Shown one piece after another: positions 362-25,113 of a DNA stretch of 25,260 nt. The stretch is from positions 1 to 25,260 of the forward strand of contig NW_013546149.1 in assembly GCF_000760515.2 (NCBI RefSeq), given 5' to 3'. A program made the position numbers and the translations under genes. Source of the DNA: Mitosporidium daphniae (taxonomy: Eukaryota; Microsporidia). The notes beneath the pieces were generated by a model, which was not told the origin of the DNA, made no database searches, and was given only the letters and a program-made list of their open reading frames with translations. How positions within the stretch are numbered: the stretch's first letter is position 1; every line of letters starts with the position of its first letter.

Positions 362-1098
362 ATGCCTAGCAAAGATTCTTTTAGAGGTGAAGATTCTCCT
401 AGACAAAAGGATCGGTACGACACCAAGGAAAGGGATCGGTACGACACCAAGCAAAGAGATCGGTACGACACCAAGCAAAGAGATCGGTACGACACCAAGG
501 AACGGCATAATAGTGATTCCAGGGAAAGACATCATCATCATTCCAGGGAAAGATACAGGGTTTCAAGACATTCTATTGAAGGTAGAGATCATGAAGATGA
601 TGGAAAAAGGGAACGACAACCTAAAGAAAGAAATGCATATTGTTCTTCTTCAAATTCGAGTGGTGATAAATACACAATTTCCAAAGAAGGGCCTAAAGAC
701 GTGTCTGCAAGTTATCACTTTGGCTATAAAAGATGCGATCGCGATTTTTCCGATAATTTTAGCAGTAAAAGTTCCGTTAAACTTGGACAAACATCTCGCC
801 CCTTAAAGGATCATTTTCTTTCAAGCGAGCATCATAATTTAGCAAAGATCCAGAAATTAGAAGTAGCAGAAGATGTGGAAGAGGTGGAAGATCTAGGGTC
901 TATTGATCCTGATATGGAGATTATGCGATCAATGGGATTCGGCTCGTTTTCATCCACCAAGGTAGGAGATTTGTATCTAAAAATTAGGGCCAGCATGTTT
1001 TGGGAGCCGATGTTTCTGCAGTCTCCACTAGTGCCCCGTTAAAGTACCGACAATACATGAACCGAGTAAATGGGTTCAATAAACCGCTTCAAAACTGA
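362..1098 (+). CDS. SNRNP27: U4/U6.U5 tri-snRNP 27 kDa protein (SNRNP27), spliced
   Basis: Two exons, 362-961 and 988-1098, are joined over a 26-nt intron (962-987, GTAGGA...TTAG, phase 0) and give 236 aa. The family signature is split exactly by the intron: exon 1 ends with the MGFGSF block followed by a Lys, and exon 2 begins GQHVLGAD and ends with KYRQYMNR and GFNKPL. That C-terminal domain is the conserved part of SNRNP27, a component of the spliceosomal U4/U6.U5 tri-snRNP that acts in the nucleus during spliceosome activation. The N-terminal 100 residues are an Arg/Asp/Ser/Tyr-rich low-complexity region like the RS domain of animal homologues, here enlarged by an 8-residue tandem repeat. 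The protein is longer than the human one (about 155 aa), mainly through this region. Its stop lies 45 nt from the stop of the convergent neighbour. Unspliced, the frame would run 27 codons past the exon and lose the conserved C-terminus. Confidence 0.93.
411..499 (+). repeat. 24-bp in-frame tandem repeat, four copies (SNRNP27 N-terminus)
   Basis: The core ATCGGTACGACACCAAG occurs at 411, 435, 459 and 483, a strict 24-bp period. It encodes the 8-residue unit RDRYDTK followed by Glu or Gln. The codons are nearly identical between copies, which points to recent expansion rather than selection on the protein alone. Confidence 0.95.
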
Positions 1099-1125
1099 CG
1101 CTATTTACCATTATCATGATGATGA

Positions 1126-1131
1126 TTTATT
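1126..1131 (-). terminator. Putative poly(A) signal of the 891-aa gene
   Basis: AATAAA on the minus strand lies 13 nt past the stop codon at 1144. It sits inside the 45-nt gap to SNRNP27, so the 3' ends of the two convergent transcripts probably overlap. Confidence 0.5.
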
Positions 1132-1143
1132 ATTCATACAAAT

Positions 1144-3984: not shown

Positions 3985-6900
3985 ATGCAATCTTCTGACC
4001 TTGGTATGCTCTCAAATTTACATTTTTGATTTATAGAAGAGGCGCTGGATGACGAGTTCTATAGCCTATCTGCAGACCAGGATACTTGCAAGCTTTCCTT
4101 TGAGAATGACGACATCCAGGAGAATAAATCAGAGTCGTTGAATGATAACCATCATACGCTGTCTTCTCTGTGTCAGGAGATAAGTCATGTTTCGAATTTT
4201 AAAAACTCAAATTTCGCGAACTTCTTACAAGAATGCTCCATCAGGCAAGATGATGAATTCTCTTGGCTCGAAGAAGAGCACCGTGACGAGGAAGAGGCAC
4301 ATGGGCCCCCCAAAAGAAAGGCATTTCACTTTTATTTTTATTTGAAGGGAAAATCAAAGAAGAAAAAAAGAGATGATGATGTCGACATTTCGTCGTCATC
4401 GACGCCATATTTGTCTGCTGAATGTTCTAAAATAATGTGCCAAGCTAACAGTAATTTTGTATCGAAAAACTATCCGGCTGCCATTGATGGATATTTAAAT
4501 GTCATACGGATAGCGCCCAATACGCACGAGGCATATTCTACGCTTGGGATTATTTACAAAGAAATGGGGGAGTCCATCAAGGCATTCAATTATGCCCTGA
4601 TCTCGCTTCATCTTTCTGAAAGCGACTCTTTGGATGGATCGTGTTGGCGCAAATTGGCGCTCGAAGCCATCTCCCTTTCGCTATCTACCGAGGCAATCTA
4701 TTGCTTTAATAGAGCCATTAGGCGGGATTGGAAAGATATTTCTTCAATTTGGATAAGGATGCTTTTATTTCATGAAAGAAGGGACCGTCGAAGGGTGGCA
4801 GACAGCTGTGTCTTGCTTTTGAAAAGCTCTCCATTTCATCCTTTAATTTTAAGGCTGTTGATTCACATTCATTTAGCCCTCAATGAGCCTATAAGGTTAG
4901 TAGGGATCTTGGAAAGCATGCTGTTGACTTCTTCTGCAAGCATCTCACGTTGGACTTATTTCCACTTGAGATTTTTATGCCGTCTTTATGTCCACCTGAA
5001 TGACTATGGAAGATTATTTTCGGCTTTACCCGGAGTCATCATTTGGATGAGAAAATCGTTTTCGGACTTTCCTTGCTCGCCATTGAAAGAAGATGACCCT
5101 GTGAGCGCGATAATCTGTAAAGAATCCATTAATTATGAAGTTGGAACAATGTTTTGCGAGTTGAACTCTCTTTGTTCGCCATTTGATTCCATATTCCATG
5201 GTTCGTTAGTCAATGATCTTCCGATCTCGACAAGTGTCTCTGAAGATGGCAGTTTGAACATTTTCGCATACGAGCAACAGATTCTAAGCAAAGAAGACCG
5301 GTCTCTACGACCTGTCGACGTAGAGGCGGAGAAAGGAGAGCTTATACTGGCCGATCCATTGGCTTATCGTTCAAGCTGGTTCGATTACATGCCTATGGAT
5401 ATTCAAGCCTATTACTTATCATCAGCCATATATGCTAACATGAACCATTACTTTGAGGTAGCCATTGCATATTTACTTTTAGACACTTTGGAAAGTGTTC
5501 AAGTCAAAATACGAGTCATCCTCACCAGAAGTAATATCTCGTTTAGCTATCGAATATGGAAAGTCAAAATTCGAGCTCCATGATCTGGTTGGAGCTGCCA
5601 ATCTTTTTACTTCTGTTTCGGCAGAATCTGATCAATACATTTCTGCCCAATGCTATCTTGCAAGATCTTATCGCCAACTTGATATGGAGCCGGAGGCAAT
5701 TCGTATTTTCAGCTCCATATTATCACTGGATCCTCTTTGCGACGATGCAAATGTTTCCTTGGCTGAAATCTATGCATCTCATGGCGACTCTTTGAGATCA
5801 CAATTCCATGCTGCAAAAGTTGCCTCTCTACTTAACCCTCAAGACATCGGTGGGGGCAAAGATACATCTGGTTGTTTAAAAATTTCGGTTGCCGAATTAT
5901 TTCGGAAATTATCGCATATTGAAGAGGAGAGCCCTGAAACCGAAGACGAGGATTCTCTAAATCTGCCCAGCCAAGATGAAGCAAAAGGATCCCTTATAGC
6001 CTCGTTTCCTAATAGAAGCGATTCAAGGCGTCCCAGAAGACCGCGTATTTCGGCGCTCAATACCAGTCTTTTGAAATGCTCCAAACCCATTTATGTGTTT
6101 GAGAGCATAGTTCCCTTTCGAATTGGAGATCAAAACTTCCCATTTGTCAGGGCAATCTCTTACACCAGATATGATGAACAGGGCTGCAAGCAAGTAAGAC
6201 TGCTTTACAAACGATCTCTGCTTCTTTTGGCGTCCGTGTCAAAGAACGAGTTTCTGATGGCAGCTGGTCTTTTGGTTTCCGACTTTATCAACAATGGCCA
6301 TTTCTATCGAGAAGGCCATGGGGAATTGAGGACATTTTCGTCGCGTTCGTTGCGTAAGGTCAGAAAGGATCTAGCTTTGAATGTATACCAGGATCCAGAG
6401 ATCTTCACCATCATCCATGCACTTTCTAGAGACATTTGCCCTGAGGAAGGTAACCGAGGACTCCGAGAAACCCTTTTACAGGCCTGCCATGGACTGACCG
6501 TTCAGGAGTGGTTTGACATCATTTTCAAGGTTTCCATGCTTTTGATACCCAATGTAGTTTTCTAAAACGGCCGTTGAATTAAGCGACCACAAGTCGGCTC
6601 TCGCAGCGTTGGTTCATGCTTCATCGTCAAATATTTTCTATTATCGGAACGAATACAAGCTGATTCTTCTGTGTTCCATCCTTACCATCGGGTATCTTAC
6701 AAACGACATTCATGCTGTCGGGAAAATCATTCGTGTCTTTTTGTTCTTGAACCCCAGATCGACATCCTATGACTACTTGTGCTCGTATTTTTTGTTGTCC
6801 CTGGGCCTGTTTTCGCACGACTTGGTGACCAACGCAAGCAATTTGAAGTTTTTCCTTCGAAATGAAAAACGGCCAGTCATCTCGGCCCATTGCTCATCTT

Positions 6901-7381
6901 TTGCTGCCACCTTGTGTGCACACTCCTATTTGGCATCAAAGAGTTATGGAGATGCTCTTATTTACTATGAAAAAGCTCTACAAAACGCCCCAAACCATCC
7001 TTTGTTGCTATTGTGCATTGCAACGACCCATCTGCTCAAATCCATACAAAGGGTCTCTCCAAATCCACAGGCCCAATTTCTGCAAGTACGAGGGGATGCA
7101 TGATCACTAATTATTAGGGTCTTTCTTTCATGATGAAATATGCTGCAATTAGAACCGCCAGCACTCCAATAGAGGTAGCCTATAATCTTGGACGGTTTTT
7201 TGACCATGTTGGGATGCACTCCCGCTCTGTATTTTACTATGAAAAGGCGCTAAATTTAGCGCCCATTTGCTCCGACAACCACATCACGCTTTTTTATGCG
7301 AGGCAAAATTTAAGTTTGGCTTATTTGCGCTCTGGGAACATTAAATTGGCTTCTAATTGCATTAAACAAAATATTTTTTAA
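3985..7381 (+). CDS. TFC4: Transcription factor IIIC TPR subunit (tau131/GTF3C3), spliced
   Basis: Five exons, 3985-4003, 4037-5457, 5483-6529, 6558-7085 and 7118-7381, give 1092 aa. The four introns are 33, 25, 28 and 32 nt. TFC4 is the TPR scaffold of TFIIIC that recruits TFIIIB to RNA polymerase III genes. Evidence is the arrangement of TPR units: a first array around residues 105-260 (ANSNFVSKNYPAAIDGY, then NTHEAYSTLGIIYKEMG), a central array after the second intron, and a C-terminal array with GLSFMMKYAAIR, YNLGRFFDHVGMHS and YYEKALNLAP, the typical end of this family. An acidic N-terminus and a basic linker (KGKSKKKKRDDD) also match. Yeast Tfc4 has a similar length (about 1025 aa). The first exon is only 19 nt; I chose it because it restores the frame with a GTATGC donor and a TAG acceptor, and the exon 2 frame has no nearby ATG of its own. 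The stop is one base from the next start codon. Confidence 0.9.
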
Positions 7382-7382
7382 A

Positions 7383-8800
7383 ATGCATACAATTTTCACC
7401 ACCAAATTTAAACTCATTGTTTCTGCTGCCACCTGTTCAAGACTGAACGATGCTGTCAAATTCTATGCAATCTTGAGGGAGATCAACATTGAGGGCATGA
7501 AAGCACAGTACCTTCAAATCCCCCATTCCAAGCCTCCAAGCACGGTTTTCATCACTGCAAGGACAATTTTTGGCAACCTGTCGGCCAGGAATGTCCTATC
7601 AAACGCCTTTTTGCCGCAAAATTACCCGAGCTCCGTATTTCCTCAGTATATGCCCTTTATAAAATGGCTATTCTTTCAAAATGTTATGGGCGCCGCCATC
7701 TGCGGTATTTAATGTTGCTAACAATAGTGATGTCGACTCAGTCTCTTTTGTTGGCCATTGGACTTGGTGCGTCCAGCTCGTTAAAAGTTGCAGCCACGTT
7801 CCAATGGGTCATAAAGGATGCCCTTGGTCAAATAGGCGGCATTTTGGCGGCCGGGGTTTTGGGTAATTTTGCCCCACATATTTGATAGGGAAAAGGTTTG
7901 ATTTGGATACAAAACGGCTTCGGTTCCTGTGCGTTTTGGGCCTGGGTGTGGCTAGCTTTGTCGAAATTTCCACGCTATATTGGCCATCGTATTTCCTAGT
8001 CTTAGGAGGCTGTGCAAACTTCAGTATTTCCTTGCTGTTTTATTGTAGTAAAAAATATTTGTTGGGTAATCTCATCGGCAACAAGGGCGTCCATTTTGAG
8101 GGCATTTTCGAGGGAAGAAAATCTTGGCGATCTGACTGCCAAGTATGCATCCCAATCTACAGCGGCCAGTTTACTGGGAACTGGTCTTGGGCTCGGCGTC
8201 TCTCATTTGTTTTCACTATCGACCTTTTCAAGTTTCTCGCTAACTTATGTCCCTTTCAGCATTGGGCTTTTATGTGGACTCTACAAAACAACCCTGTATA
8301 TTAGAGTGACCAACTTGAAATTTGCGAGTCTGGTGTGCATTTTTTGTGATTTTGAACGGCAGGCCAAAACGTCTGTGTCAGATGATTTGCATGTGCTTCA
8401 CGGCTTTTTAAAAAATTACAATTTAATTTCTCCAGATTCAATCCACAACTTTCAATTGGCTCCTCCACAAAGGCTTTGTATAAACTACCCCATTTCGAAT
8501 CTTGATGGGTTGTCACAAGATATCTGCATTTTTGACTCGGATTCTTTTTTGCTTTGCAAGCATCTGTACTCTTCAAAAACATATTTATGGATTAAAGAGC
8601 ACGCATCGTTTCGGCAAGTGGTGGAATCTGTGGTGTACTCGCTCTTCTTTGATGCATGGAACTTTGCGCCCGATGTTTCCCACATTCTGGTCAGGTTATT
8701 TGTACAAAAACTTGTGACAGAATCTTTTTGGAACCTGGAGTCTTTTGTCCCGCTATCGCCTGAGCTGAGTCAAATATGTTTTCTAAAATCTATTGGCTAA
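7383..8800 (+). CDS. RUSF1: RUS family protein (DUF647), spliced
   Basis: Four exons, 7383-7704, 7728-7862, 7889-8023 and 8049-8800, give 447 aa; introns are 23, 26 and 25 nt, all phase 1. The product matches the Root-UVB-sensitive/C16orf58 (DUF647) family block by block: FLPQNYPSSVFPQY (76-89), the LLLAIGLGASSS helix, ATFQWVIKDALGQIGGIL, then KNICWVISSATRAS and the Gly-rich TGLGLGVS. Each splice joins two of these blocks in the expected order and spacing. The family occurs in plants, animals and fungi as a membrane-associated protein; its biochemical activity is not established, although plant members act in auxin and vitamin B6-linked development. The length fits the family. Start choice: the first ATG lies 1 nt after the TFC4 stop; the alternative ATG at 7497 would cut 38 residues before the conserved domain, so the true start is uncertain. 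Confidence 0.9.
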
Positions 8801-9000: not shown

Positions 9001-9948
9001 TTAGTTACAATTATTGTCCGAATGAAGCGCACAAATAAACTCAAATATGATTTGGTTTGGATCGGGATTCATTTTTGAATAGTGGTCCATAGCTACGCGC
9101 AAAAGCGAAGATTTTGAGGCAGTCGGACGAATAGATAATTTATAAACTTTCCTGTATCTACGAAGAGCTTCTAAATTTAGAAACTCAATAGGTTGCGGGT
9201 ACTTCTTTTTATACAAATTTGCAGATTTCCTTTTTGGCAAGGCAAAGTCTGAGGTTCCTGAGGCCCTTTGCTGTCGAGGCGAAAGCATTTGAGAAGGATA
9301 TCCCTTAAGTGCAGACGATAACTCTGGAGTTTGATGATGGCGTTCAGATTGTCTTCGTACTAATGTCCCTTCAGATAGCTTTTTTAGCAATGCTCGTTTT
9401 CCAAGAGGACTAGGCTTTTTCTTTTTAAAGCTGTTATATTCAGATAGCAGTACAAACGAGGAAGCTGATGAATTGAGAGAAGTGGAGGAAGCAGATGAAG
9501 AAGATGCCGATGATGGCGACGATGGTGAAATTTGCGGTGATAGTGTTGCTGATAAGGATGTTGTCTCGTTTTGATCTTCAAATTTGTTTGGCAATTTTAC
9601 AGGTGCCTCTTGAAAAAGATCAGTTTTATCACTTTCGTGCGTTATTTTACACTTATCCGGCTCGTTTTGCGAAAATTCAGAGCCTGGTTTTTCAGTCGCT
9701 AACGCAATGAAATTTCGAGCTGCTGATTCTCTATTAGCAAGTAGCTCATTTAAATTAGGAGATGTCGACCTTGAATCAGATGGAGAAGTGATAGATATGT
9801 GTTTCCCATAATGCGAAATTATCTCTGCAGATGGAGAAAATGCTTCGGGTTGTCGAAAGGATTCCATTGGATGACAATGCTCATCTGCTACAAATTCGGA
9901 CCTTATATTTGAATAGTCTTTTGTTTTAAACGTGATCTTCGTTGCCAT
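9001..9948 (-). CDS. SAP30: SAP30-like Sin3/HDAC complex subunit
   Basis: Single exon, 315 aa from the ATG at 9948. The last 60 residues are the SAP30 Sin3-binding domain: LNLEALRRYRKVYKLSIRP, a helix ending in MDHYSKM, and IIFEFICALHSDN. This domain ties SAP30 to Sin3 in the Rpd3/HDAC corepressor of chromatin. The rest is low complexity, with a Ser-rich tract about residues 145-175 and a basic stretch (KKKKPSPLGKRALLKK) that could be a nuclear localisation signal. I see no N-terminal zinc finger of the animal SAP30 type. An in-frame ATG 36 nt upstream (9984) adds 12 residues (MYFYYKENITNK) and cannot be excluded; I prefer the second because its neighbourhood looks more like coding sequence. 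It is convergent with the RUS gene and tandem, 313 nt away, with the kinase gene. Confidence 0.82.
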   Translation of the reverse strand: MATKITFKTKDYSNIRSEFVADEHCHPMESFRQPEAFSPSAEIISHYGKHISITSPSDSRSTSPNLNELLANRESAARNFIALATEKPGSEFSQNEPDKCKITHESDKTDLFQEAPVKLPNKFEDQNETTSLSATLSPQISPSSPSSASSSSASSTSLNSSASSFVLLSEYNSFKKKKPSPLGKRALLKKLSEGTLVRRQSERHHQTPELSSALKGYPSQMLSPRQQRASGTSDFALPKRKSANLYKKKYPQPIEFLNLEALRRYRKVYKLSIRPTASKSSLLRVAMDHYSKMNPDPNQIIFEFICALHSDNNCN

Positions 9949-10261: not shown

Positions 10262-11835
10262 TCATTTTAGCGGGGCTACTTTGGAATTATTGAGTTTCAA
10301 TGCTTTGCGGGTTTCTTCGACACGATTGCAATTGCACGGAGATTTGATGCAAGAGACACATTTTTTTGCGTAACTCTTGTTCTTTCCAAGAATCTTTGCC
10401 CAAAACGATGTGTGTTTGGGCTTACACGGAGACTGCGAGCTATTTACATCCTCTATGCGATCAAAAATTACACAAGAGGACGAATCCGTTTTATCCTCTG
10501 CGCCCTGTTCACTTTTGTCGTGTAGCAGGAAATTTTCAAAGGTCTTTTTGCCTTCCATTCTTTTTCGATGGAGCCATTCATAGTGGAGATGATATAAATT
10601 TTTGATGGGCGATCTTTGATTGTTTTTGAATTCATGGTAGTATTCGTATTTTGAATAGCCCAGTGAAATTAGCTCTTGTAGAGTTTCTTCATCCAAAACG
10701 TCGAGTATGTTTGGGCGGTAGGGGACACCAGAGACTGGGCCGTATTTGTAGCCCAGAATCGTCCAAGGATGGTTTTTGATTTCCTCCAGGGTGGCTCTTC
10801 GCCGAGGGTGAATGTCTAGCATGCGAGAGAGCAGCGAAATTGCATCGGATGACAAGTAAAAAGGTGTCCCATAGCTTCCTTTGGCAATGGACGCATACAA
10901 ATCCGTAATGGTGGCACCTTGAAAGGGCAATCCTCCAGTAATCATCATATAAAGAATGACGCCCAAAGACCATACATCGACCTCGGGCCCCACATATTCA
11001 ATGCCTTGAGTCATTTCGGGGGCAGCGTAGAAAGGAGACCCGCAAAAGGTATTGAGAAATCCATGCTCATTCCATGTATTTCCAAAGCCAAAATCAATCA
11101 ACTTGACCGTCCTGCAATCAGCATCCTTCATCAGCAGGTTTTCGGGCTTCAAATCGCGATGAACAATGCTTGACTACATGGGTTATGATGGCCATCTTGT
11201 GCCTACCTCGTGGCAATAATCGACGGCGGAAACTATTTGCCTGAAAAAAGACCTTGCCTCAAGTTCAGATAATTTCCCTTTCGACGTAATATAGTCATGA
11301 AGCTCCCCTTTGGTGCAGTGTTCCATGATGATGTAAGTGGTCGGCTTGGTCTCCACGATATCTATGATTTTGACAATATTTGGGTGGTGCAATATTTTTA
11401 AAAGCCTAAGCTCTCTCGACACATTTTTCTTTTCCCTCGAGCTCTTGAGGGCGGTCATATCGATCCTTTTTATGGCAAACTAAACAATCAGATTGCAATG
11501 GTTACATATTCTCCAGAATTTCTATGTTTGACCAGATAGACTTTTCCAAACGTGCCCTTGCCGAGCTCTGACACAATTTCATAGTAAATGTCTATGACTG
11601 GCTCTCCGAAGGCTTTGAAGAATGGAGATGCCGTTTCTGTGAGGAAATATGAGGCCGGATGAAGCGATTCCAGCTTTTCCTCGATTTTTAACGGCACATT
11701 TTTAATGAGGTCCCTGTTTTTCCGCGGTGGGCTTTGGGGTGAAGAGGGTGCGGCCAAATTTTGGTCCCTAATGGATCTCTCAATCCTTTGGGCAAGTGTT
11801 GAGGGTTGGGTTAGCGAGGGGTTGACTGTTTTCAT
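10262..11835 (-). CDS. Snf1/CAMKL-family serine/threonine protein kinase, spliced
   Basis: Three exons in coding order, 11835-11506, 11479-11207 and 11173-10262, give 504 aa; introns of 26 and 33 nt, both phase 0. All kinase motifs are present: Gly loop GKGTFGKV (about 92-99), catalytic Lys in FAIKRID (K114, at the first splice), HRDLKPEN (206-213, rebuilt by the second splice), DFG (228-230), and the activation segment with LNTFCGSPFYAAPE. The Thr before FCGSP (T243) sits where LKB1-type kinases phosphorylate AMPK-related kinases. YMMITGGLPFQG and the following lobe are typical of the CAMKL (Snf1/MARK/NUAK/Nim1) group. After the kinase domain a UBA-like segment (DEETLQELISLGYSKYEY) and a YHLHYEWLHRK helix follow, then a Cys-containing basic tail (KKCVSCIKSPCNCNR). 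I cannot say which CAMKL subfamily it is; the lack of a Snf1-type regulatory C-terminus argues against Snf1 itself. Confidence 0.9.
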
Positions 11836-12240: not shown

Positions 12241-13216
12241 ATGCAATCCCTTAATTTGTTTTCTTTTGTGTGCCTTCTCTTCGTTGTGTTGCAATTGGCA
12301 GTTTCCGTTGCGACACAATTGACTCCAAACTTTGAAATCGTTGTTACCAGGGATGGCCTTCAGTCAGCCAGCCAAAGGTCGGTGTTTTGTTGTCTTATTT
12401 CGTAGAATTTCGAATTCCAAAATTTCCCAGCATCTGCTGGACCTCCAGGAAAAAAACATGCTAAAACTTACCATTGATTCGTTTTCTGTCCCCGACGTGC
12501 CAAAGAAGGATACCGTCTTCCATTACATCTGTGCACTTCGCGGCGAGCATGTTTTCAAATGTTTTCCCGGGACCCTGGAAAGCAAAAAGTATGCGTTTAC
12601 AATTGTAAGATGACGAGCCGGCATTAACTTATCATCTTAGGATCCGGTGAAAGAATACTTTGTGTCTGGATCTTTTAATTTGGTGCTGTACTCCTCCTTC
12701 ATCTCCATGCAGGACGGAAAGTCTCACATTTCGAATCAGTTCCAAACGGATCTTGGCAGGTTGGATATTTCTCGGAAAGCAGACCAAGCTACAATCAATG
12801 CCGACAGATTGTCTATGTTGGGGCCGAACGCATGGAGAGACTCGTGTGGCCCGCTTCCAGAAGTTGTATCAAGCGGAGAGCCAAAGTCCCCCCCAAAAGC
12901 AAGCACCTTGCTTTCTTTTGTTTTTGTGTTTTTAGTGATCGTTGTGCCTTGGGTTTCGCTACTTTATTTGGTAAGACGCGACCATCTTTTATGTTCTCGC
13001 TAGTGGAGGCAATCGAACATTAACATGCACGGGATCTTCGATTTTTCGGCTCTTGGCTTTGTGTTTTTCCTTTCGTTTTTGGCATCCATTCTTTCACTGA
13101 TGCTTGTCCTAGTCATCAATTGGCTATGGCTGGATATCTTCACCACCTTAAAATACCTTTCGTTGTCAAGTTTTATTACAGCCTTTTCTGTGATCGGCAT
13201 GGCATGCTCCGCATAA
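12241..13216 (+). CDS. SWP1: Oligosaccharyltransferase subunit Swp1/ribophorin II, spliced
   Basis: Four exons, 12241-12377, 12406-12604, 12641-12970 and 13004-13216, give 292 aa (yeast Swp1 has 286). Introns are 28, 36 and 33 nt. Swp1/ribophorin II is a non-catalytic subunit of the ER oligosaccharyltransferase that N-glycosylates nascent proteins. The sequence shows a cleavable signal peptide (residues 1-24), a lumenal beta-rich part, and three C-terminal membrane segments at about 199-222, 239-266 and 273-292. The conserved membrane-domain features LLYLW and FTTLKYLSLSSF match ribophorin II. The first intron has an unusual GTCGGT donor and is the least certain splice. Identification rests on topology, length and the C-terminal motif, not on a searched alignment. 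The stop is 17 nt from the stop of convergent ATG9. Confidence 0.8.
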
Positions 13217-13222
13217 GTCATC

Positions 13223-13228
13223 AATAAA
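13223..13228 (+). terminator. Putative SWP1 poly(A) signal in the 17-nt gap
   Basis: AATAAA begins 7 nt after the SWP1 stop and ends 5 nt before the ATG9 stop codon on the other strand. Cleavage 10-30 nt downstream would fall inside ATG9 coding sequence. Confidence 0.5.
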
Positions 13229-13233
13229 CTAGA

Positions 13234-15707
13234 TTACACTTGACTCTGATTATCGACATACTTATTCACCAGATCTAGTAGACTCTCCGAGTTGGCTTGA
13301 TTTTTATTTGAGGAGACAAGTCTTTTGCCTCTTGATCGCGATTTTGCGAGGTTGACACCAAAGCCCGCAGAAGTAGAGTTCATGTCCAGATGATCGCCCT
13401 CATCACATTGATCATCGGAAGACGATGACGATGTTATTCTTAATTTATACTCATCCTCAGGTGTGAATGGAGCAGACTCTGATCCTGCAAGAATAGAAAG
13501 CCCAATATTTCTTATGGGAGACGTAACTGATAAGCCGCTTTGCGGATTTTTCGGCTTTGCATACGAGCCGAGTGGCGGCAGTTGCCTTGCCGGTTGCTTT
13601 TTAAGGGTCTTGGCACCGAAATCAAGGAGCCGGCTAAGATACATCGTACCAGAGGGACCAGGTGTCCATTCGGGAAACTTTTCTTTGAAGTTGAGAAAGG
13701 ATTTCTCCATCTTTCCATGCTCAGATTGAAAGTAGTGCATGTTTTGATTCTTTTTCGGCTCCGTTACGCATCCATACTAAAATTTAGACCCATTATGGCG
13801 GCAAAAACTTACCTTGGGATTTCCATTTTTATAGAAATCAAAGAGGGCAAAAGAGCAAACATACCCGAGGCCGTCCACATGTACAGAAAAGTCCTTGAAA
13901 AAGCTAATGATTGCGGTTGAGCATTTTGGAAGCGAAAAGCACATGATGATGGGCGTCAAAACGATGCTTAGCATTTCGTGCAAAAAGATCGCAATTTTGT
14001 AGTGAAATAGCGACGAAAACTCGTTTCTGACCGTTTTGGTGTGAAGCGCATTTTTCCAGTGCAACGGAAGGTACCTCAAGTGGAATGTCACTTTGTTGAG
14101 CAGCTCCTCTGGCTTGTATATGATTGTTTCGTCGGGAATCAAATACCTGCAAAAGGCAACAAAGACACCCAATACACCGATATACCAAAGCATTGTTCTT
14201 CCCGTGGTGACTTCCAAATCCAATAAAAGGTCTTCCACCAAAAGACCCCATAATATCAACACAAAGGCCAAAGATCCGGCGACAAAGCCAAAAAATCTAG
14301 TGTTTCAATATTGCAACGCAATTACTTGGCGGCAATTGCGACAAGATGGCCCGGGTACAACGAAGTGTATGTTTTTGCCGCCGAAAGGCTTTGATTGATG
14401 CGCTCATCAAAGAACGATTGCAGCTCATTCAACTCCCGAAATTGCCATAGCGCATAGGGGGTGTATTGGCGCGTTCCAAGCATTTTTGGATTGTGGTACA
14501 ATTCCTAAAAGATAAAGCGCACCACAAGTGACTACTTCTCCATAGCGAAAAATGAAATATACGCCCAAAAAGGCCAAGATGAACGGGCTTGCCAATAAGT
14601 TCATAAATGCCATGATGACAAAGCGCTTCCGAAGCTCCAGGGCCAGCTCGCTTACTTGCACGTTTTCGACAAACTTTTTTCTTATGTGGCCGTTTGAATC
14701 GAAAACAAACTGAAGAATGCAAATGGACAAGTTGATTTCCATCGTTTTGGTGAGCAGCGGCTGCGTACCAAAAACGACCGGAAATGGTGGATGAAGGTCC
14801 AAAATGTTCTTGTTCAGCAAAGAAAGAAAGTAGTTTTCCTTGCGTAATATCCTGTTTGCGATAACTAGCGTGTGAGATACACCAACGTGCGGTACCATGC
14901 GCATCTAGCTGCATTCCGGAAGGATCCAGCGGGAATTTGTCGTTTACCTCGATGACCTTTTTAATGATGTCTTGGATGGAAAGCGTTGCGAGGTCGCGAT
15001 CTGGGATGTCCAGAAGATGAGTATATATGTCCCGTATCTTTACCAAGTCATTATACTCAAAGACGAGCTTCAGAATCTGCCAAATCCAATAGCTGATGAA
15101 GATGACAAAACATATGCCCCAAAAGAAAGAGATGTTGAGCATCCTATTGAGATGGATGAAATTTATCAATTTCCGATGGCGTATGTCGGAGCTGGAATCC
15201 GGGTTCAACAGACACTTATAATCAATGCAATTGAGCAAAAACAGGAAGAAGATCACAATGAACCCAATGGTGAACACAGAGCAGATGCGCTGGAAAAGCA
15301 TCACCTTAAAGCCCTTGCCCTTGTAATAGTCGTATATCTAGGGATATGCAGGCAATCTTAACCTGGATCAGCAACTGGTCGATGTTCAAGGTACTTTGCC
15401 ACAATTGCAGGGCCTTTTTTCTTCCAATGCTCGCATGCGTTGCATCGATCGCATCTCCGTGCTGCACGTTCGCCGCATCTGCATTTGCAAGAAGCCTCTT
15501 GGAATGGTAAGGCACCGATTTTGGCGACCTTTTATTTTTCAAGTTCTTCATTTCAACGAGCAGAGACGAGGAAAGTATATCGTCGTTCGAATTTCCGGCA
15601 AAGTAGTTGGCCGGGTTGTTCTGGTTTAGAGGCGTTGTCTCCGAGATAAAATCAAAGTTAATGGAGGAAGAATCAGAGTCCTCGTTAAAGGAGGCACCGT
15701 TGTGCAT
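13234..15707 (-). CDS. ATG9: Autophagy lipid scramblase Atg9, spliced
   Basis: Six exons in coding order, 15707-15363, 15337-14896, 14864-14536, 14504-14326, 14296-13813 and 13776-13234, give 773 aa. The introns are 25, 31, 31, 29 and 36 nt. Atg9 is the only multispanning core autophagy protein; it scrambles phospholipids in Golgi-derived vesicles that seed the autophagosome. Conserved blocks appear in order: IYDYYKGKGF after the first splice, LDAHVIANRILRKENY (about 257-272, created by the second splice), NPKMLGTRQYTP with WQFRELNEL (third splice, about 377-399), FFGFVAGSLAFVLILWG (fourth), the YLPLHWKNALHTKTVRNEF and LHEMLSIVLTPIIMCFSL segments, and GKMEKSFLNFKEKFPEW in the tail (fifth). 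Acidic/polar N- and C-terminal tails of the usual kind flank the membrane core. It is divergent from COQ11 (114 nt) and convergent with SWP1. Confidence 0.96.
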
Positions 15708-16604: not shown

Positions 16605-16614
16605 TTTACGTTGT

Positions 16615-16698: not shown

Positions 16699-18669
<1,971 letters not shown>

Positions 18670-18723: not shown

Positions 18724-21651
18724 ATGAAGCATGTTCCCCAAGTCTGTTTGACGCTGTTGTTTTTCCTGCTGTCTATTTATCTTTTTGTGTGTAGCCTTTT
18801 TAGAATTAGAAAAATCTTAAACCATGAGTCTACGATGCTCGGGCCTGAACACAATACCATCTTTGACCAGTTATATTTTGAAATTTATGGAGACCACCAA
18901 GAGATAATTTTAAAATTCAACCCCATTAATGCAGCAATGTCCAAATATGGCATGGGTCCTCTTCCTGTGATCGGTGGGTTTAATGATGCTGGAGATTCTT
19001 GGCTTCCATCAAGATTCAACAGATCAATTTTGTACCTAATTGATGCCATGAGATTTGATTTTACCATTCCCATTGAGGATGATGCTTTAAGAAATGCAAA
19101 CTTTCACAATCGCCTACCGGCTCTCAACGACTCTGATGGCAACTTTTCGTTTTACCAATCGATTTTTATCTCCGATCCGCCCACAACATCGCAGCAAAGA
19201 GTTACTTCAATAGCGTCTGGCTCATTGCCAAATTTTATCGAGGCCGCCTTTAACTTTGCAATGATCGAAAGCGTTCAAGATAACTTTTTGAAACAGGCAA
19301 AAGCCGTGCTCGGGCCAAAAGCAATATATTTCTTTGGAGATTCAATCTGGACTAGCCTATTCCCTTCCATCCTATCAAACGATACCGATAAAACAGGGGC
19401 CGAGAGGACTTTGCATGAGTTTGAGCAAAAAAACGTCCATGCCGACTATTCATTCCACATCTACGATTTAGACACCGTCGATAGGAATATCATTAAAAGG
19501 GTCGGTCCATTTCTAAACAATCACATGGTCTCCGATACGTCGCCATTTATGCTTATATGTCATTTTCTTGGCGTCGATCATTGCGGCCACAAACATGGGC
19601 CAAATTCAAGGTTTATGTCCGATAAATTGGATGAGATAAACTCCTTCATTGATTTTACCAAATCGCGGCTTGATCAGTCTACTCTTTTCTATATTTTTGG
19701 CGATCACGGGATGACCGATAACGGAGAGCATGGGGGTTCTTCTTTAAAGGAAATAGCGGCCGGGTTGACAATGTTCTCTCGAAGCCCGTTGAATATCCTC
19801 AATTGCATTGAAAAGGCTCTGTATGGTGTTCCTGAGCACTGCCCATTATTTGGTGCGTTGCAACTTGAATTTGAGTCTTTGAAGGGATTTTTTAACAAAT
19901 TGAACACCATCAAACACTCGACCTTTGTGGAGTATGACTTTCTTGGATTGTCCAAATTCATTCCAATATCATCGAAAATGGACAAGGTTTCTCAAGTGGA
20001 TTTTGGCGTCAATCTTTGCCTACTAATGGGACTTCCCATCCCATATTCATCTCTTGGAATAGTTATCCCAGAATTATATTTTGCTGTAGACCCGTTTTCG
20101 GTTTTTTGTTGTGCCGAAATTTCAACGGTTCAACTGCAAGTTTTATTGAGGAAATTTCGGGTTCAGAATGGTCTGTTTTTATTGAGAGTGGTTCGGTTGA
20201 ACCTGCTCTCCGTGATTCGCTATTACCGAACGCTAGAATCGCCACAAAGCTTACACACAGGTTCGATTGTTGGTCAAATGATGTCTCAATTTGAGAAATA
20301 TGAATGCGCTCTTATGGATGATGAGCAAGATTTACACCTGCACTATGAAAAGGTAGAGGACTATATTGTTGCGTATATGACTATGTTATGCACACTAGTT
20401 ATCAAGGGGCGGTCCTCTTGGGCGCATCAAAATGAATTTATGTTGCTGTTTTCGATTTTTGTTCTTTTTGTTGCCTTGGTTTTCGTACTGACCTTGGGGG
20501 TTAAAAGATCGCTTTTAAAGGCCGGTGTGGAGCGGTGGATAAGCATTCCCAACCTTGCCGTGTGCTCGATCCTAGTGTTGCATGGAGTTTCTTACTTTTC
20601 CAACAGCTTTATTATTTACGAGTATGACATTGTACGCTATGTGTTGTCCTCTTTTTTTCTTTCCCTGTTTTTTTATAGACTCAAAAGCTCCGCCCGCTTG
20701 TCTCTCTCCGATTCATACACCCTTCTAAAGGTGCTTGCTATACTCAAGCTGTCTTACTATTTTGGTGCATGCAGAGAGGAACAGGACCTTTGCCGCTACA
20801 TTTCAAGAGATTTTGTTGATAGCCTTTCGTCTCAATATCCTGGGCTCGTTGTTTTTGCTTTCTTTCTGTGTTTTGTGGTTTCAATTTCATTGTGCCGAAG
20901 ATTATTTCCGCTTCCAACGCCACATTTTCTTAACCTCGCTTTTGCTTCGCTTTTGATATTTGTACGATGGACATGCATGCTGATGCTAGAAAATCTCCAC
21001 TTGCACGACAACCCAAAAACGGCGTACATTTTATCTTTGCTGGTAGCCAACATCCCGAAACTTGTATATTCCAACTTCTTTGTTGGTCTTTTGGTGTTCA
21101 GCGCTCTCAAAGTATTGTGTTTTTTGCCAATTGTTTTCATATTGCTCCGGCCTACATTTGGGGCTTTTACTATGCTGTCAACGCTATTTTTGGTGGATGC
21201 CCTTGAACTTGCTGATCCCCGACATGTGCCTACAGCATTCAAATGTGTCCTTCTTTTCTTTTCCTCGATTTTTGTCTTTTTTACATCGGGACATCAATTT
21301 TCTTTTTCAACCATCCAATGGGAAGTGTCTTTTTATGGCTTTCTTGATCCCAGCCATTGTGTGGCAGGGCTTTTCATCTTCATCAACGTATTTGGGCCTT
21401 CCATGCTTGTATATTGTTTATCACACGATCCCAAAGACGATTTGACCAATTTCGATTTTTTTCTTCTGTCCTGCCTGATGCTTATGATTTCTTGCTTCCT
21501 ATTTAGACAACACTTGATGCTTTGGGCAGTGTTTGCTCCAAAATTAATTTTTATTCTTCTATTTACGCTCGTTTTTGGCGTTCTATCCCTGTTCAAGGAC
21601 ACTTCATTTCTTGCAAAAAGCACCGAACAGCAAGGGGAAATTGGCTATTAG
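18724..21651 (+). CDS. GPI13: GPI ethanolamine phosphate transferase 3 (Gpi13/PIG-O)
   Basis: Single exon, 975 aa. The enzyme adds ethanolamine phosphate to the third mannose of the GPI anchor in the ER, the bridge to the protein. The N-terminal signal anchor (about 8-26) is followed by an alkaline-phosphatase-superfamily domain: SILYLIDAMRFD with D107, the nucleophile region DPPTTSQQRV (151-160), FFGDSIW, GVDHCGHKHGP (283-293; D285, H286, H289, H291) and FGDHGMTDNGEHGG (325-338; D327, H328, H336). PPTTSQQRV and DHGMTDNGEHGG are diagnostic of the PIG-N/G/O group, and the overall arrangement fits PIG-O best. Residues about 550-960 hold a dozen or so membrane segments, as in the family. The length is close to yeast Gpi13 (about 1000 aa). 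The last 48 nt of the gene overlap the 3' end of the RhoGAP gene on the other strand. Confidence 0.93.
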   Translation: MKHVPQVCLTLLFFLLSIYLFVCSLFRIRKILNHESTMLGPEHNTIFDQLYFEIYGDHQEIILKFNPINAAMSKYGMGPLPVIGGFNDAGDSWLPSRFNRSILYLIDAMRFDFTIPIEDDALRNANFHNRLPALNDSDGNFSFYQSIFISDPPTTSQQRVTSIASGSLPNFIEAAFNFAMIESVQDNFLKQAKAVLGPKAIYFFGDSIWTSLFPSILSNDTDKTGAERTLHEFEQKNVHADYSFHIYDLDTVDRNIIKRVGPFLNNHMVSDTSPFMLICHFLGVDHCGHKHGPNSRFMSDKLDEINSFIDFTKSRLDQSTLFYIFGDHGMTDNGEHGGSSLKEIAAGLTMFSRSPLNILNCIEKALYGVPEHCPLFGALQLEFESLKGFFNKLNTIKHSTFVEYDFLGLSKFIPISSKMDKVSQVDFGVNLCLLMGLPIPYSSLGIVIPELYFAVDPFSVFCCAEISTVQLQVLLRKFRVQNGLFLLRVVRLNLLSVIRYYRTLESPQSLHTGSIVGQMMSQFEKYECALMDDEQDLHLHYEKVEDYIVAYMTMLCTLVIKGRSSWAHQNEFMLLFSIFVLFVALVFVLTLGVKRSLLKAGVERWISIPNLAVCSILVLHGVSYFSNSFIIYEYDIVRYVLSSFFLSLFFYRLKSSARLSLSDSYTLLKVLAILKLSYYFGACREEQDLCRYISRDFVDSLSSQYPGLVVFAFFLCFVVSISLCRRLFPLPTPHFLNLAFASLLIFVRWTCMLMLENLHLHDNPKTAYILSLLVANIPKLVYSNFFVGLLVFSALKVLCFLPIVFILLRPTFGAFTMLSTLFLVDALELADPRHVPTAFKCVLLFFSSIFVFFTSGHQFSFSTIQWEVSFYGFLDPSHCVAGLFIFINVFGPSMLVYCLSHDPKDDLTNFDFFLLSCLMLMISCFLFRQHLMLWAVFAPKLIFILLFTLVFGVLSLFKDTSFLAKSTEQQGEIGY

Positions 21652-23179
21652 GTCTTTTGTGATCACCTGCTCCATGCTCATATCCTTCCCTATTCCCGTA
21701 GAAATGGCCCCCAGTTTTGTGTCGTTTTTTCTTATGATCACTTTTCCCGCAATACGGGAAATCTTGGACAAATCATCTCCAGAAGGCTCTTCACCATTCC
21801 AAAATTGATATATGTGTCCAATAAATTTTGATAGCGTAACGCCATGTTCCATCGGCAGATTGTTGATCGTCTTTGTAATAAGCCCTAATCTTATATCTTC
21901 CTCCCGGCGGTAGGCAATCGCATCCAATTCCGGATGTGTGATGAATGGAAATAGCGGCTCGGGAAGGTCTGAAAAGAATTTCAACACAATGCCAGCTAAA
22001 ATGGGTGGGCTCTGCGTTTCAAGAATCGAAGCTAAAACAAAAATAACACAACCGGGCGTTACGTCCCTCAGCTTCAAACTTGATGCCCACCGCATCTACA
22101 ATGGCGGCATCGGAACATGAACAGAGATAATCATTCAAACTCCCTAGTTTCTCAATTTCAAGGGGATTACCGTTTTTTTCAATTAGCTTAAAGCAAGCCT
22201 GGAGTATGGCTGGATATTGTTCATCCCTCCAGGCAAGTAGATCAATCAAAAACACCCCAAACGAAAGGTCTTCAAATTAGACGTCATATCCATACATTTC
22301 AATTGCCCAGCAACAGGGTGTTCAATCGTCACCATCTCTGGAATCGTAGATTTAGGTCTACACTTGTCCGAATCAAGAGAAAACTCTCCCAAATCACCGG
22401 TTGAGCTCGTTGATGAGCTTGTAAGAAGCTTGAAATTTATCAAGCCGCCGCATACCTTAAACAGGGCATCGACAAAAGAAAATTGATTTTCAACTAATTG
22501 GTGATGATTAAATGATTCCCTCAAACCTAGATACTGGAAAGCAGCTTTCAACAGCTGAGATCTTGATTTGCCAAACTCAGAAAGAAGCTTTTCGTTTAGT
22601 TGAATCAATCTTACTTGGTTGGCCTTTGCAAGTAGCGCTATTTGGGCTGCCCTTCTCTTTCCAAAACTCCCCATTTGGATACGCAGGTCCTTCTAAACAT
22701 AATCACCAAGACAATTACTTCTGTTTGCCCCATCATATTTTCGAAATAATTTTCCTTAAATAAGGAGAGCAGCTACGATGAGCATTGGGCAGTACCTTTG
22801 ACACACAATCTCTTCTTTCGTTAAATTCGGCCTCAGAGTTATTCAAATCAAGCATAATGATATTGATCTGTGTAGCCTGTTCCAAAAGATCGACTCTAAA
22901 AAGCTTCAATATTACAACATTAAATTCTTCAAGAAACTTTTTCCTTAGCTCAATGATTGCTTTGTAGGAATCGAAAATCGACGTACACTTTCCATCATCT
23001 CTCAAATGCTGATACCTTGAAAGAAGCACACTCATCCCAGATAAGTACTCCAATTCAAGGACATAGCTAAAGGTAAGCTAAAAAATGTACTGATTATTTA
23101 AAAAATTATAAAGCTCATTCGTTTCTGGAAGTATGCTGAGATCGATTTCCTGCAAAGTGGAGTCTAAAATATTAATCAT
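21604..23179 (-). CDS. RhoGAP-domain protein with coiled N-terminus and degenerate active site, spliced
   Basis: Six exons in coding order, 23179-23091, 23066-22796, 22772-22719, 22692-22296, 22269-22063 and 22031-21604, give 481 aa. Introns are 24, 23, 26, 26 and 31 nt. Residues 272-480 form a RhoGAP fold: FGVFLIDLLAWRDEQYP at its start (a family hallmark), then ILAGIVLKFFSDLPEPLFPF (350-369, restored by the last splice), and a C-terminal helical part. The arginine-finger motif GIFRxSG is missing; the aligned region reads LNDYLCSCS (316-323), with Cys where Arg is expected, and the later conserved Asn is not seen. GAP activity is therefore doubtful. Residues 1-240 are helical, Leu/Glu/Lys-rich, and resemble a BAR or F-BAR-like membrane-curvature domain, but I cannot tell which. 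The fourth intron uses an AAG acceptor. The final 48 nt overlap GPI13 coding sequence antisense. Confidence 0.85.
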
Positions 23180-23412: not shown

Positions 23413-23416
23413 ATGA
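23309..23416 (+). other. Possible upstream ORF overlapping the thioredoxin start (ATGA)
   Basis: A 35-codon frame starts at 23309 and its TGA stop (23414-23416) overlaps the thioredoxin ATG (23413-23415) in an ATGA junction. If the thioredoxin mRNA starts upstream of 23309 this would act as a regulatory upstream ORF. The product is not recognised, and a GTAAGT inside the frame (23340) could instead be a 5'-UTR intron donor. Confidence 0.3.
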
Positions 23417-24092
23417 GCTCATCAAAACTCTGTTTATATATATATGCATATTGCTCTCTTATGTTGATCTATTCGCTATTCTTTCTGACTTCACAAGTAG
23501 CTTGCAGTTCCATCATAAAAGATTCTCATCTAGATCTGCCTTCAAGCAAGGTAATTTCAGGAAATCTGGGCATAATGACAGACGGCAATATGGACAGGGT
23601 ATTGAATTTATTATTCTTAATCACTAGCTTCTTAAAGAGAGCAAGGTTTCAGGTATCCTTATCTACAGTGAAAATTGCAATTCTTGTCTCACGCCACTAA
23701 TAGTAAAAATCCTTCACTGATTACTAATAATATAGGAATTTAGCAAGGCTTCGAAAGCTCTGGAAGACGACGAAAAGATAAAAATGTATGCAATGGACAG
23801 TAAAACAGGAAAAAAGCTTGTGAAACTTGCGTGTATCGATAAGGTTCCGACTGTATTGGTGCATAGAATTGGCGATGGATTTATTGCTTATCCTCATGAC
23901 TTTCCGTTTAGTGAAAAAAAATTTGTCGAATTTTTAAGCAAGATAGCATGCATGGGTTATGATGAGGGACAGACGAATTGGCTCAAATATGTTCTTCCCG
24001 GTGTCGCTACGTTTGTGATCCCTGTTCCAGCGAATTGTGCCGGCATCACAATTCCCCTAGGTGACCCTACCACCGAGACTAATAGAGCATAA
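23413..24092 (+). CDS. ER-type transmembrane thioredoxin-fold protein, spliced
   Basis: Three exons, 23413-23598, 23628-23702 and 23736-24092, give 205 aa; introns of 29 and 33 nt, both phase 0. It has a signal peptide (hydrophobic core at about residues 7-28), then a thioredoxin fold: MTDGNMDRLLKES (strand and helix, joined by the first splice), SGILIYSENCNSC with a redox-type CxxC (C79, C82), and the cis-Pro loop KVPTVLV (P125). A hydrophobic segment at about 172-194 could anchor it in the membrane, leaving a short tail. The design resembles TMX/PDI-family proteins of the ER. The residue before the first Cys is Asn rather than Trp, and the dipeptide between the cysteines is NS, so the redox potential is likely unlike classical PDI (CGHC). 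The substrate is unknown. An extended N-terminus is possible if the upstream region is transcribed and spliced. Confidence 0.78.
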
Positions 24093-24114
24093 ACTAGAGT
24101 AAAACCTAACCCTA

Positions 24115-24120
24115 AATAAA
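24115..24120 (+). terminator. Putative thioredoxin-gene poly(A) signal
   Basis: AATAAA lies 22 nt after the stop codon and within the 46-nt gap to the convergent phosphatase gene. The phosphatase stop codon itself (TAA, 24139-24141) is embedded in an AATAAA on the minus strand (24138-24143). Confidence 0.45.
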
Positions 24121-24138
24121 CTTCAATGTGTCATCGTT

Positions 24139-25113
24139 TTATTGAGCAATAAACTTCACAAGATCACCAATACTTTGGCAAGCAAAAGTGGGCCTCTTAT
24201 CTGTTGGAGTTTCGCTCAACTCTTTTCTGGTTGAATATCCAGAAAACACAAGTAGTGTGTTTATTCCACCCTTATGGCCAAAAACAATATCGGTGTCCAA
24301 TCGATCTCCAACCATGCAGGTGCGTTTGGGGTCAATATGTAACTTTTCCGTTATGCAGTCAAGGAGTTTGATTGATGGCTTTCCTATTATGGTTGGAATT
24401 CGTCCAGATGAATAGATTAGGAACGAGGAGATGCTTCCCGTGCCTGGTAACGAACCGTCTTTCATGACCAATATATTATCCATATTGGTAGTGATGAATT
24501 CTGCCTCATACGCACCTTCAATAGTTATTTAAGGTCCTAAAATAGTTACCTGAGGTATCATTAACGTGTCTTAGGTATGTGTTTGCAAGAGCCAGTTTGT
24601 CATAGGATAGCTTGGAATCGAGCCCGACAATCACAGCGTCAACCTAAAAAAATATACTTCACAAAACCTTTTCAGGCCTGGCGTCGTAATTTGTCCCATC
24701 CTCATTAATGTAGAAGATGCGCAAGTTCGTTAATTCTAGCTCTTCAACGATACCCGGACCTCCCAATACAAATATGTTATTATGTATGGGAGAGATATGA
24801 GTAATGTATTGAGCAGCGGCAGAAGTTGAGGTAAAAATGTCATCAATCGAAACATGAGTTAAGCCGAACGAATGGAAAATATCAACAAAATCTCTTCTGG
24901 AGTGAAGAGAATTGTTGGAGACAAATATAACTCTTTTTCCGAGTGAATGTAAATATTGCAATGCTTCAACAGAGCCTGGGATAGGTGTTTGATATCCAAG
25001 CCATATGACACCTACATTTAATTGAGAGAAATACCATCGCAGTCAAAAAGAAAGGTATCATTTCCATTTATAAATGCTTGGGCCTCTGAAGCAGAAGTAA
25101 TCTCGATCATCAT
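24139..25113 (-). CDS. PHO13: PHO13/phosphoglycolate phosphatase-like HAD hydrolase, spliced
   Basis: Four exons in coding order, 25113-25035, 25011-24668, 24643-24550 and 24515-24139, give 297 aa; introns are 23, 24 and 34 nt. All HAD motifs are present: FLFDCDGVIWLG (motif I, nucleophile D24 and D26, rebuilt by the first splice), VIFVSNNS (motif II), IGKPS (motif III Lys) and MVGDRLDTDI (motif IV). The C2-type cap contains YINEDGTNYDARPEK. These match the eukaryotic 4-nitrophenylphosphatase/PGP group (yeast Pho13, mammalian PGP), which repairs toxic side products of glycolysis and clears 2-phosphoglycolate in the cytosol. The length is close to yeast Pho13 (312 aa). The chosen start gives MMIEITSASEAQAFI, the usual N-terminus. 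The frame is open 34 codons further upstream, but that extension has no family match. The last intron ends AAG. Confidence 0.94.

What the first reader, a model, noticed from the sequence alone, without database searches (positions are those of the whole stretch)
962..25034. Thirty-seven spliceosomal introns, all 23-38 nt
Every split gene is restored to a full-length, family-conserved protein only if tiny introns are removed. Lengths range from 23 nt (7705-7727, 17603-17625, 22773-22795, 25012-25034) to 38 nt (18093-18130). Donors are GTA in 30 of 37; acceptors are TAG in 32. Some carry a near-perfect branch motif (GCTAAC at 7717-7722 and in the 18295-18325 intron). Introns of 23 nt are among the shortest known for any eukaryotic nuclear genome, so the distances between donor, branch point and acceptor must be close to the physical minimum for the spliceosome.
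Basis: partly seen in the sequence, partly recalled or inferred. Interest (0 to 1): 0.8.

Follow-up and report, generated by a model that had tools for sequence, protein, structure and literature searches.

The report
Tiny introns of a Daphnia parasite
The genes in this stretch of a Daphnia gut parasite's genome are interrupted by what look like real but tiny introns, 23 to 38 bases long; such introns are known from other reduced eukaryotes, and here they matter because they are still numerous in an early relative of the nearly intron-free microsporidia.

Summary
Confirmed from sequence; no RNA was available. The window is a whole contig of Mitosporidium daphniae. In 173 kb a gene model called 196 introns of at most 60 nt, 1.72 per kb of coding sequence, median 27.5 nt, and none in reversed or shuffled DNA. 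Donors are weak; a GCTNAY-like branch motif is enriched 6-12 nt before the acceptor. U1, U2, U5, U6 and Prp8 are present. So: ordinary major-spliceosome introns, miniaturised. That 23 nt is near the physical minimum is not supported: 15-21-nt introns are described, and E. cuniculi has 22-76-nt ones. Boldest reading: introns shrank before microsporidia lost them.

The parts
362..1098 (+). SNRNP27 (tri-snRNP 27K protein) gene, one intron
   Evidence: PF08648 at 74 bits only after splicing; unspliced ORF matches no Pfam family
962..987 (+). intron 26 nt
   Evidence: frame and homology
3985..7381 (+). TFIIIC tau131/GTF3C3-like gene, 4 introns
   Evidence: sequence match to PDB 8clk_D, 8ffz_C
4004..4036 (+). 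intron 33 nt
   Evidence: in-frame stop
5458..5482 (+). intron 25 nt
   Evidence: frame
6530..6557 (+). intron 28 nt
   Evidence: frame and homology
7086..7117 (+). intron 32 nt
   Evidence: stop and homology
7383..8800 (+). RUS-family (UVB_sens_prot) gene, 3 introns
   Evidence: PF04884 192 bits across all three junctions
7705..7727 (+). intron 23 nt with GCTAAC
   Evidence: stop and homology
7863..7888 (+). intron 26 nt
   Evidence: stop and homology
8024..8048 (+). intron 25 nt
   Evidence: frame and homology
10262..11835 (-). Ser/Thr protein kinase gene, 2 introns
   Evidence: Pkinase 255 bits over the full domain after splicing; 107.5 bits for the half in one ORF
11480..11505 (-). intron 26 nt
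   Evidence: stop and homology
11174..11206 (-). intron 33 nt
   Evidence: stop and homology
12241..13216 (+). ribophorin II/Swp1-like gene, 3 introns
   Evidence: PF25147 36 bits (on a version with a longer C-terminus, later dropped)
12378..12405 (+). intron 28 nt
   Evidence: stop
12605..12640 (+). intron 36 nt
   Evidence: stop
12971..13003 (+). intron 33 nt
   Evidence: stop and homology
13234..15707 (-). ATG9 gene, 5 introns
   Evidence: PF04109 530 bits, positions 2-478 of 478 after splicing; 200 and 106 bits for two separate ORFs
15338..15362 (-). intron 25 nt
   Evidence: frame and homology
14865..14895 (-). intron 31 nt
   Evidence: frame and homology
14505..14535 (-). intron 31 nt
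   Evidence: frame and homology
14297..14325 (-). intron 29 nt
   Evidence: stop and homology
13777..13812 (-). intron 36 nt
   Evidence: stop
16699..18669 (-). poly(A) polymerase gene, 9 introns
   Evidence: 475 bits to 7q72 (571-residue version); alignment with Rozella and a second homologue
18619..18652 (-). intron 34 nt
   Evidence: stop
18295..18325 (-). intron 31 nt with GCTAAC
   Evidence: homology; also in deposited model
18093..18130 (-). intron 38 nt
   Evidence: the 20-nt alternative leaves a 6-residue insertion against homologues
17955..17980 (-). intron 26 nt
   Evidence: homology; also in deposited model
17838..17864 (-). intron 27 nt, the one not forced by frame or stop
   Evidence: if kept, a 9-residue insertion absent from two homologues
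17603..17625 (-). intron 23 nt
   Evidence: homology; also in deposited model
17454..17481 (-). intron 28 nt
   Evidence: homology; also in deposited model
17035..17066 (-). intron 32 nt
   Evidence: stop and splice signals; deposited model uses 17029-17051 instead and homology does not decide
16880..16913 (-). intron 34 nt
   Evidence: stop and homology
21604..23179 (-). RhoGAP-domain gene, 5 introns and 2 undecided ones
   Evidence: PF00620 36 bits (on a version with all 7 removed)
23067..23090 (-). intron 24 nt
   Evidence: stop
22773..22795 (-). intron 23 nt
   Evidence: frame only
22693..22718 (-). intron 26 nt
   Evidence: frame only
22270..22295 (-). intron 26 nt
   Evidence: frame only
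22032..22062 (-). intron 31 nt
   Evidence: frame and homology
23461..24092 (+). thioredoxin-like gene, 2 introns
   Evidence: PF00085 at 19 bits, below the cut-off of 23.5
23599..23627 (+). intron 29 nt
   Evidence: frame; weak homology
23703..23735 (+). intron 33 nt
   Evidence: stop; weak homology
24139..25110 (-). HAD-family phosphatase gene, 3 introns
   Evidence: PF13344, PF13242, PF00702 after splicing
25012..25034 (-). intron 23 nt
   Evidence: stop and homology
24644..24667 (-). intron 24 nt
   Evidence: stop and homology
24516..24549 (-). intron 34 nt
   Evidence: stop and homology

Best explanation
These are ordinary major (U2-type) spliceosomal introns of the nuclear genome of Mitosporidium daphniae, an early-branching microsporidian, shrunk to a median of about 27 nt while staying numerous. 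Shown from sequence: frame restoration, homology across most junctions, length peak, splice signals, snRNAs. Inferred: U1 pairs with AAG|GTA, U2 pairs with a degenerate GCTNAY-like site whose A often lies 6-12 nt before the acceptor, the spliceosome works across the intron (intron definition) and takes the first AG beyond the branch site. As little room remains between branch site and acceptor, the T-rich stretch lies largely around or upstream of the branch site. That splicing occurs was not observed.
For: 196 introns of at most 60 nt in 173 kb; 182 of all 209 calls are 23-38 nt; no gene above the cut-off in reversed or shuffled DNA. With every length up to 300 nt equally allowed, 98 of 162 calls still fell at 23-38 nt. 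CTNAY with its A 6-10 nt from the acceptor: 36 seen, about 9.5 expected; at 3-5 nt: 1 seen, about 6.7 expected; 31 of 134 introns against 13 of 484 decoys. U1 with ACUUACCUG, U2 with GUAGUA, U6 with ACAGAGA, U5 and a 2,419-residue Prp8 frame are present. The deposited annotation of the same contig has 4 of the 9 poly(A) polymerase junctions, one of them 23 nt.
Against: No RNA evidence. 10 of 37 junctions lack homology support. The branch motif is weak: 103 of 134 introns have no CTNAY 6-12 nt from the end, exact CTAAC is no more frequent than in shuffled introns (4 of 174, shuffled mean 2.5), and TNAC is not enriched. The gene model was trained on its own output; its acceptor profile covers the last 12 intron letters one by one, so T-richness and AG avoidance there are partly built in. 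With lengths free up to 300 nt, 54 of 162 calls exceeded 60 nt, spread without a peak; those in the window skip exons or gaps between genes. It also made a wrong 20-nt call (18093-18112) and a GC-AG artefact (13202-13232).
Confidence: 0.96

Rival explanations
1. The breaks are assembly or sequencing errors (indels), or the genes are decaying pseudogenes, and the introns only patch them.
For: 36 of 37 candidate introns change the frame or hold a stop, as errors would.
Against: Errors would not begin with GT, mostly end with TAG, carry a branch motif and cluster at 24-34 nt. Where it can be read in frame (17838-17864), the kept segment is a 9-residue insertion relative to homologues, not a one-base shift. 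53 of 69 gene models in 173 kb carry such introns.
Confidence: 0.01
2. The segments are real but are removed from DNA (like ciliate internal eliminated sequences) or bypassed by frameshifting in translation, not spliced.
For: Their size and AT-richness resemble ciliate eliminated sequences (recalled, not tested).
Against: GT...AG ends, AAG| exon context, branch motif and canonical snRNAs point to the spliceosome. I recall no such case in fungi (not searched).
Confidence: 0.01
3. Nearly all are real, but a minority are wrong at one end, so some true lengths are longer or differently placed.
For: It happened at 18093 (20 against 38 nt) and at 17035 against 17029 between models; 10 of 37 junctions lack homology support.
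Against: 27 of 37 junctions sit inside matched stretches; 109 required introns in high-scoring genes keep to 22-42 nt.
Confidence: 0.25

Closest known systems
Encephalitozoon cuniculi introns (37 introns, 22-76 nt; PMC3629993, abstract and passages)
   Same: Microsporidian, GT-AG, down to 22 nt, stop-bearing or frame-shifting; RNA-seq confirmed.
   Different: [quoted passage not shown] here about 1.7 per kb of coding sequence with weak motifs.
Paramecium tetraurelia introns (table row in PMC2483917 gives 25, 25.14 and 3.06, which I read as median, mean and s.d.)
   Same: Short, dense, very weak branch consensus.
   Different: Narrower length range; unrelated lineage.
Mikrocytos mackini 16-17 nt, heterotrich ciliates 15-16 nt, chlorarachniophyte nucleomorph 18-21 nt (PMC10245619 and PMC9505925, passages)
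   Same: Miniaturised spliceosomal introns handled by a recognisable spliceosome.
   Different: Shorter and nearly fixed in length; M. daphniae introns range over about 22-38 nt.
Deposited Mitosporidium daphniae poly(A) polymerase model (P0241)
   Same: Contig of the same length; 4 of 9 junctions identical.
   Different: Starts 77 residues late, keeps two introns, uses other junctions at two more; truncated at both ends and carrying two insertions.

Membership tests
U2-type spliceosomal intron | GT-AG (rarely GC-AG) ends | tested here: met
   37 of 37 GT-AG in the window. In the wider set 168 of 174 GT and 6 GC, but only GT, GC and AG ends were allowed by the model
U2-type spliceosomal intron | Branch site complementary to U2 GUAGUA | tested here: met
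   CTNAY enriched near the acceptor but degenerate; CTRAY in 26 of 174, shuffled mean 12.4; CTAAC not enriched
U2-type spliceosomal intron | Major-spliceosome RNAs and Prp8 in the genome | tested here: met
   U1, U2, U5, U6 over Rfam cut-offs; Prp8. U4 not tested
U2-type spliceosomal intron | Removed from mRNA | not testable with these tools
   No RNA data
U12-type intron | U12 RNA in the genome | tested here: not met
   Best hit 19.2 bits, cut-off 53; the assembly is incomplete and no control genome holds U12
Ultrashort-intron lineage (short, dense, weak signals; PMC2483917) | Typical length about 20-30 nt | tested here: met
   Median 27.5 nt of 196
Ultrashort-intron lineage (short, dense, weak signals; PMC2483917) | High intron density | tested here: met
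   1.72 per kb coding sequence, 53 of 69 gene models, 19 of which run off a locus end
Ultrashort-intron lineage (short, dense, weak signals; PMC2483917) | Weak donor and branch consensus | tested here: met
   1.07 bits over +3 to +6; commonest hexamer of any kind (TTATTT) in 12.7% of 166 introns; bits not computed exactly as in the paper

The most novel reading that the evidence does not exclude
Mitosporidium shows the order of events in microsporidian intron loss: introns first shrank to about 25 nt while remaining numerous and weakly marked; only later did canonical microsporidia lose nearly all of them and tighten the few survivors. It would place one lineage first in the 'short, dense, weak' class and its relatives later in the 'few, strong' class, two classes that a 50-species survey described as opposed (PMC2483917, passages).
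Probability: 0.45. Interest if true: 0.6.

Novelty: new member of a known kind. Interest (0 to 1): 0.42.

Why it matters
It gives a usable intron grammar for a pivotal early microsporidian and shows, in the one deposited model checked, that missed tiny introns spoil the protein, which bears on gene-loss counts made from such models. It also makes the order of shrinkage, loss and consensus tightening in Microsporidia testable.

Tried and rejected
Rejected: the impression that the genome had no name (none of the 120 hits listed for GPI13 is labelled Mitosporidium); Prp8 and the poly(A) polymerase settled it. Rejected: the four 19-20-nt calls of the gene model; the one testable case (18093-18112) is wrong by homology, the other 3 were not tested. 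Rejected: 13202-13232 (GC-AG) and 13291-13312, which only extend the Swp1-like gene past its own stop. Little or no sign: introner-like copies (one pair at 0.77 identity, shuffled maximum 0.68, 99.9th percentile 0.64 in both, 5,886 pairs); 5' bias of position (50 of 87 in the first half). Inconclusive: a shortage of stopless 3n introns, because these are the ones a frame-based search misses. Open: SF1, U2AF65, UPF1. SF1-HH and the UPF1 zinc domain gave no hit, but neither search rang in any control and only 4.66 Mb is held; U2AF_lg gave 30 exon-sized hits, none over the cut-off; the UHM gene on C78 is an SF-CC1 type; the KH gene on C56 matches the PDB entry named KIAA0907; the one on C33 has several KH domains by eye; C64 and C22 candidates were not obtained. 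Rfam at gathering level found nothing in the window. Left out of the 173-kb set: L001 (part of the window), L014, L015.

Literature: three papers looked up by id are not held (recalled as Haag 2014, Whelan 2019 and the Amphiamblys genome paper), so whether they tabulate M. daphniae introns is unknown. Searches listed no paper whose title or shown abstract treats them. Of the 10 papers that one search listed I opened 7 for passages; one says that an M. daphniae caleosin gene is intronless (PMC6309107), the other 6 showed nothing on M. daphniae introns, nor did PMC5701793 and PMC12449221. 3 of the 10 were not opened.

Full report
What was claimed.

Where the window lies. The window is the whole contig C119 of an assembly of 4.66 Mb in 147 contigs. 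Prp8 from contig C59, 115,468 bases long, is 100% identical over 100% of its length to a deposited Mitosporidium daphniae protein whose contig has 115,468 bases. The deposited M. daphniae poly(A) polymerase comes from a contig of 25,260 bases, the length of this window, and can be reproduced letter for letter from it. NCBI places the species in Microsporidia.

Checking the observation. I rebuilt ten split genes from a gene-model run plus homology. 20 of 37 hold an in-frame stop and 36 of 37 are needed to keep the frame or avoid a stop. Unspliced, the same start codons give ORFs of 14 to 226 residues; spliced, 189 to 1,092.

Homology. Spliced ATG9 matches its Pfam family once, from position 2 to 478 of 478, at 530 bits, against 200 and 106 bits for two separate ORFs. 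The kinase rises from 107.5 to 255 bits. The SNRNP27 tail is recognised only after splicing (74 bits; unspliced none). The RUS-family domain spans all three junctions of its gene. The poly(A) polymerase, nine introns, aligns at 475 bits with fission yeast Pla1. In all, 27 of 37 junctions lie inside matched stretches; two of these, in the thioredoxin-like gene, rest on a match below the family's cut-off. The other 10 rest on frame and signals. Three proteins were searched in a version that differs a little from the final model: poly(A) polymerase with the 20-nt intron, the RhoGAP gene with two more introns removed, the Swp1-like gene with a longer end.

Against the deposited model. The deposited poly(A) polymerase (455 residues) starts at 18404 and uses introns 18295-18325, 18093-18112, 17955-17980, 17603-17625, 17454-17481 and 17029-17051. 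It shares 4 of the 9 junctions given here. Its 20-nt version at 18093 leaves six extra residues and its read-through of 17838-17864 leaves nine, neither present in the Rozella protein nor in P0242. It also lacks the first 77 residues and breaks off at the retained intron 16880-16913. At 17035 homology does not decide.

Beyond the window. I trained a simple gene model on the window and 17 further loci (173 kb). The final run gave 69 gene models (19 open at a locus end), 114,231 bp of coding sequence and 196 introns of at most 60 nt: 1.72 per kb, in 53 of 69 genes, median 27.5 nt. Of all 209 searches are 23-38 nt, 13 exceed 60 nt, and 4 are below 22 nt and unsafe. 188 of 209 are required by frame or stop. 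In an earlier run with every length up to 300 nt equally allowed, 98 of 162 calls fell at 23-38 nt; 54 exceeded 60 nt, spread without a peak, and those in the window skip exons or gaps between genes. Reversed and window-shuffled copies of the same DNA gave no gene above the score cut-off.

Anatomy. Donors are AAG|GTA-like with only 1.07 bits over +3 to +6, and the commonest hexamer of any kind is in 12.7% of 166 introns. Motif search without a preset pattern found GCT(A/T)(A/T)T-like sites well above shuffled introns; exact CTAAC and TNAC are not enriched, CTRAY and CTAAY are. CTNAY sites put their A 6-10 nt before the acceptor 36 times against about 9.5 expected, and once at 3-5 nt against about 6.7. 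Compared with 484 look-alike stretches in coding sequence, 134 GT...TAG introns have the motif 6-12 nt from the end more often (31 of 134 against 13 of 484), more T (43% against 31%) and fewer AGs in the 10 nt before the acceptor (7% against 31%). Single letters of the donor and of the last 12 intron positions were used in training, so the last two contrasts are partly built in; the CTNAY pattern as such was not used. Estimated donor-to-branch distances are mostly 12-20 nt. Positions along genes show no clear 5' bias (50 of 87 in the first half) and phase 0 prevails (64 of 109).

The machine. U1 (5' GUACUUACCUGG), U2 (GUGUAGUAUCUGUUC), U5 (GCCUUUUAC loop) and U6 (ACAGAGA) each have one hit over the Rfam cut-off. 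U12 is not seen; U4 was not sought. SF1, U2AF65 and UPF1 are unresolved. Inference: a standard spliceosome defines these introns across the intron and tolerates weak signals because so little sequence lies between the ends.

What is known. E. cuniculi introns are 22-76 nt and confirmed by RNA-seq, though 81% of junctions there are spliced below 50% (PMC3629993, abstract and passages). Introns of 15-16, 16-17 and 18-21 nt are described (PMC10245619, PMC9505925, passages). So 23 nt is short but not a limit. A 50-species survey says that the genomes with the shortest introns are intron-dense with weak signals while intron-poor lineages have strong ones (PMC2483917, passages). A fungal survey whose main text does not mention Mitosporidium gives the microsporidian ancestor 0.22 introns per kb and Rozella 2.53 (PMC8476143, passages). 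With about 1.7 per kb, M. daphniae lies near Rozella in density with lengths in the E. cuniculi range. That suggests shrinkage before loss. Intron positions could not be compared here, so intron gain is not excluded, and I found no intron lengths for Rozella.

Verdict. The kind is known; the member is an intron-rich early microsporidian whose tiny introns are only partly captured in the one deposited model that I could check.

Noticed in passing
16699-18669 (-): The deposited M. daphniae poly(A) polymerase model is truncated and carries two insertions because tiny introns were missed; other deposited proteins may be affected.
   Followed up: yes
362-1098 (+): The window itself encodes a spliceosome part, the tri-snRNP 27K protein SNRNP27, whose conserved tail is interrupted by one of the tiny introns; its start holds several near-identical RYDTK repeats.
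   Followed up: partly
18724-21651 (+): A 975-residue GPI13/PIG-O-like gene in one open frame; the 120 hits listed include a near-identical protein from source lgn but none labelled Mitosporidium.
   Followed up: no
window 18724-21651 and L025:425-7684: Unnamed public proteins match at 60% (GPI13, P0002) and 89% (Prp8, P0122), so an unnamed relative of Mitosporidium has probably been sequenced.
   Followed up: no
G000 as a whole: No hit for the UPF1 zinc domain or the SF1 helix-hairpin domain; the searches rang in no control and the assembly is incomplete, so this is only a lead.
   Followed up: partly
22429-22455 and 22494-22526 (-): Two further GT-AG stretches in the RhoGAP gene that keep the frame either way; undecided.
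   Followed up: partly
9001-9948 and 1144-3819 (-): Two long ORFs; the gene model put no intron in the first and one optional GC-AG stretch, not counted here, in the second. The second matched no Pfam family; the first was not searched.
   Followed up: no
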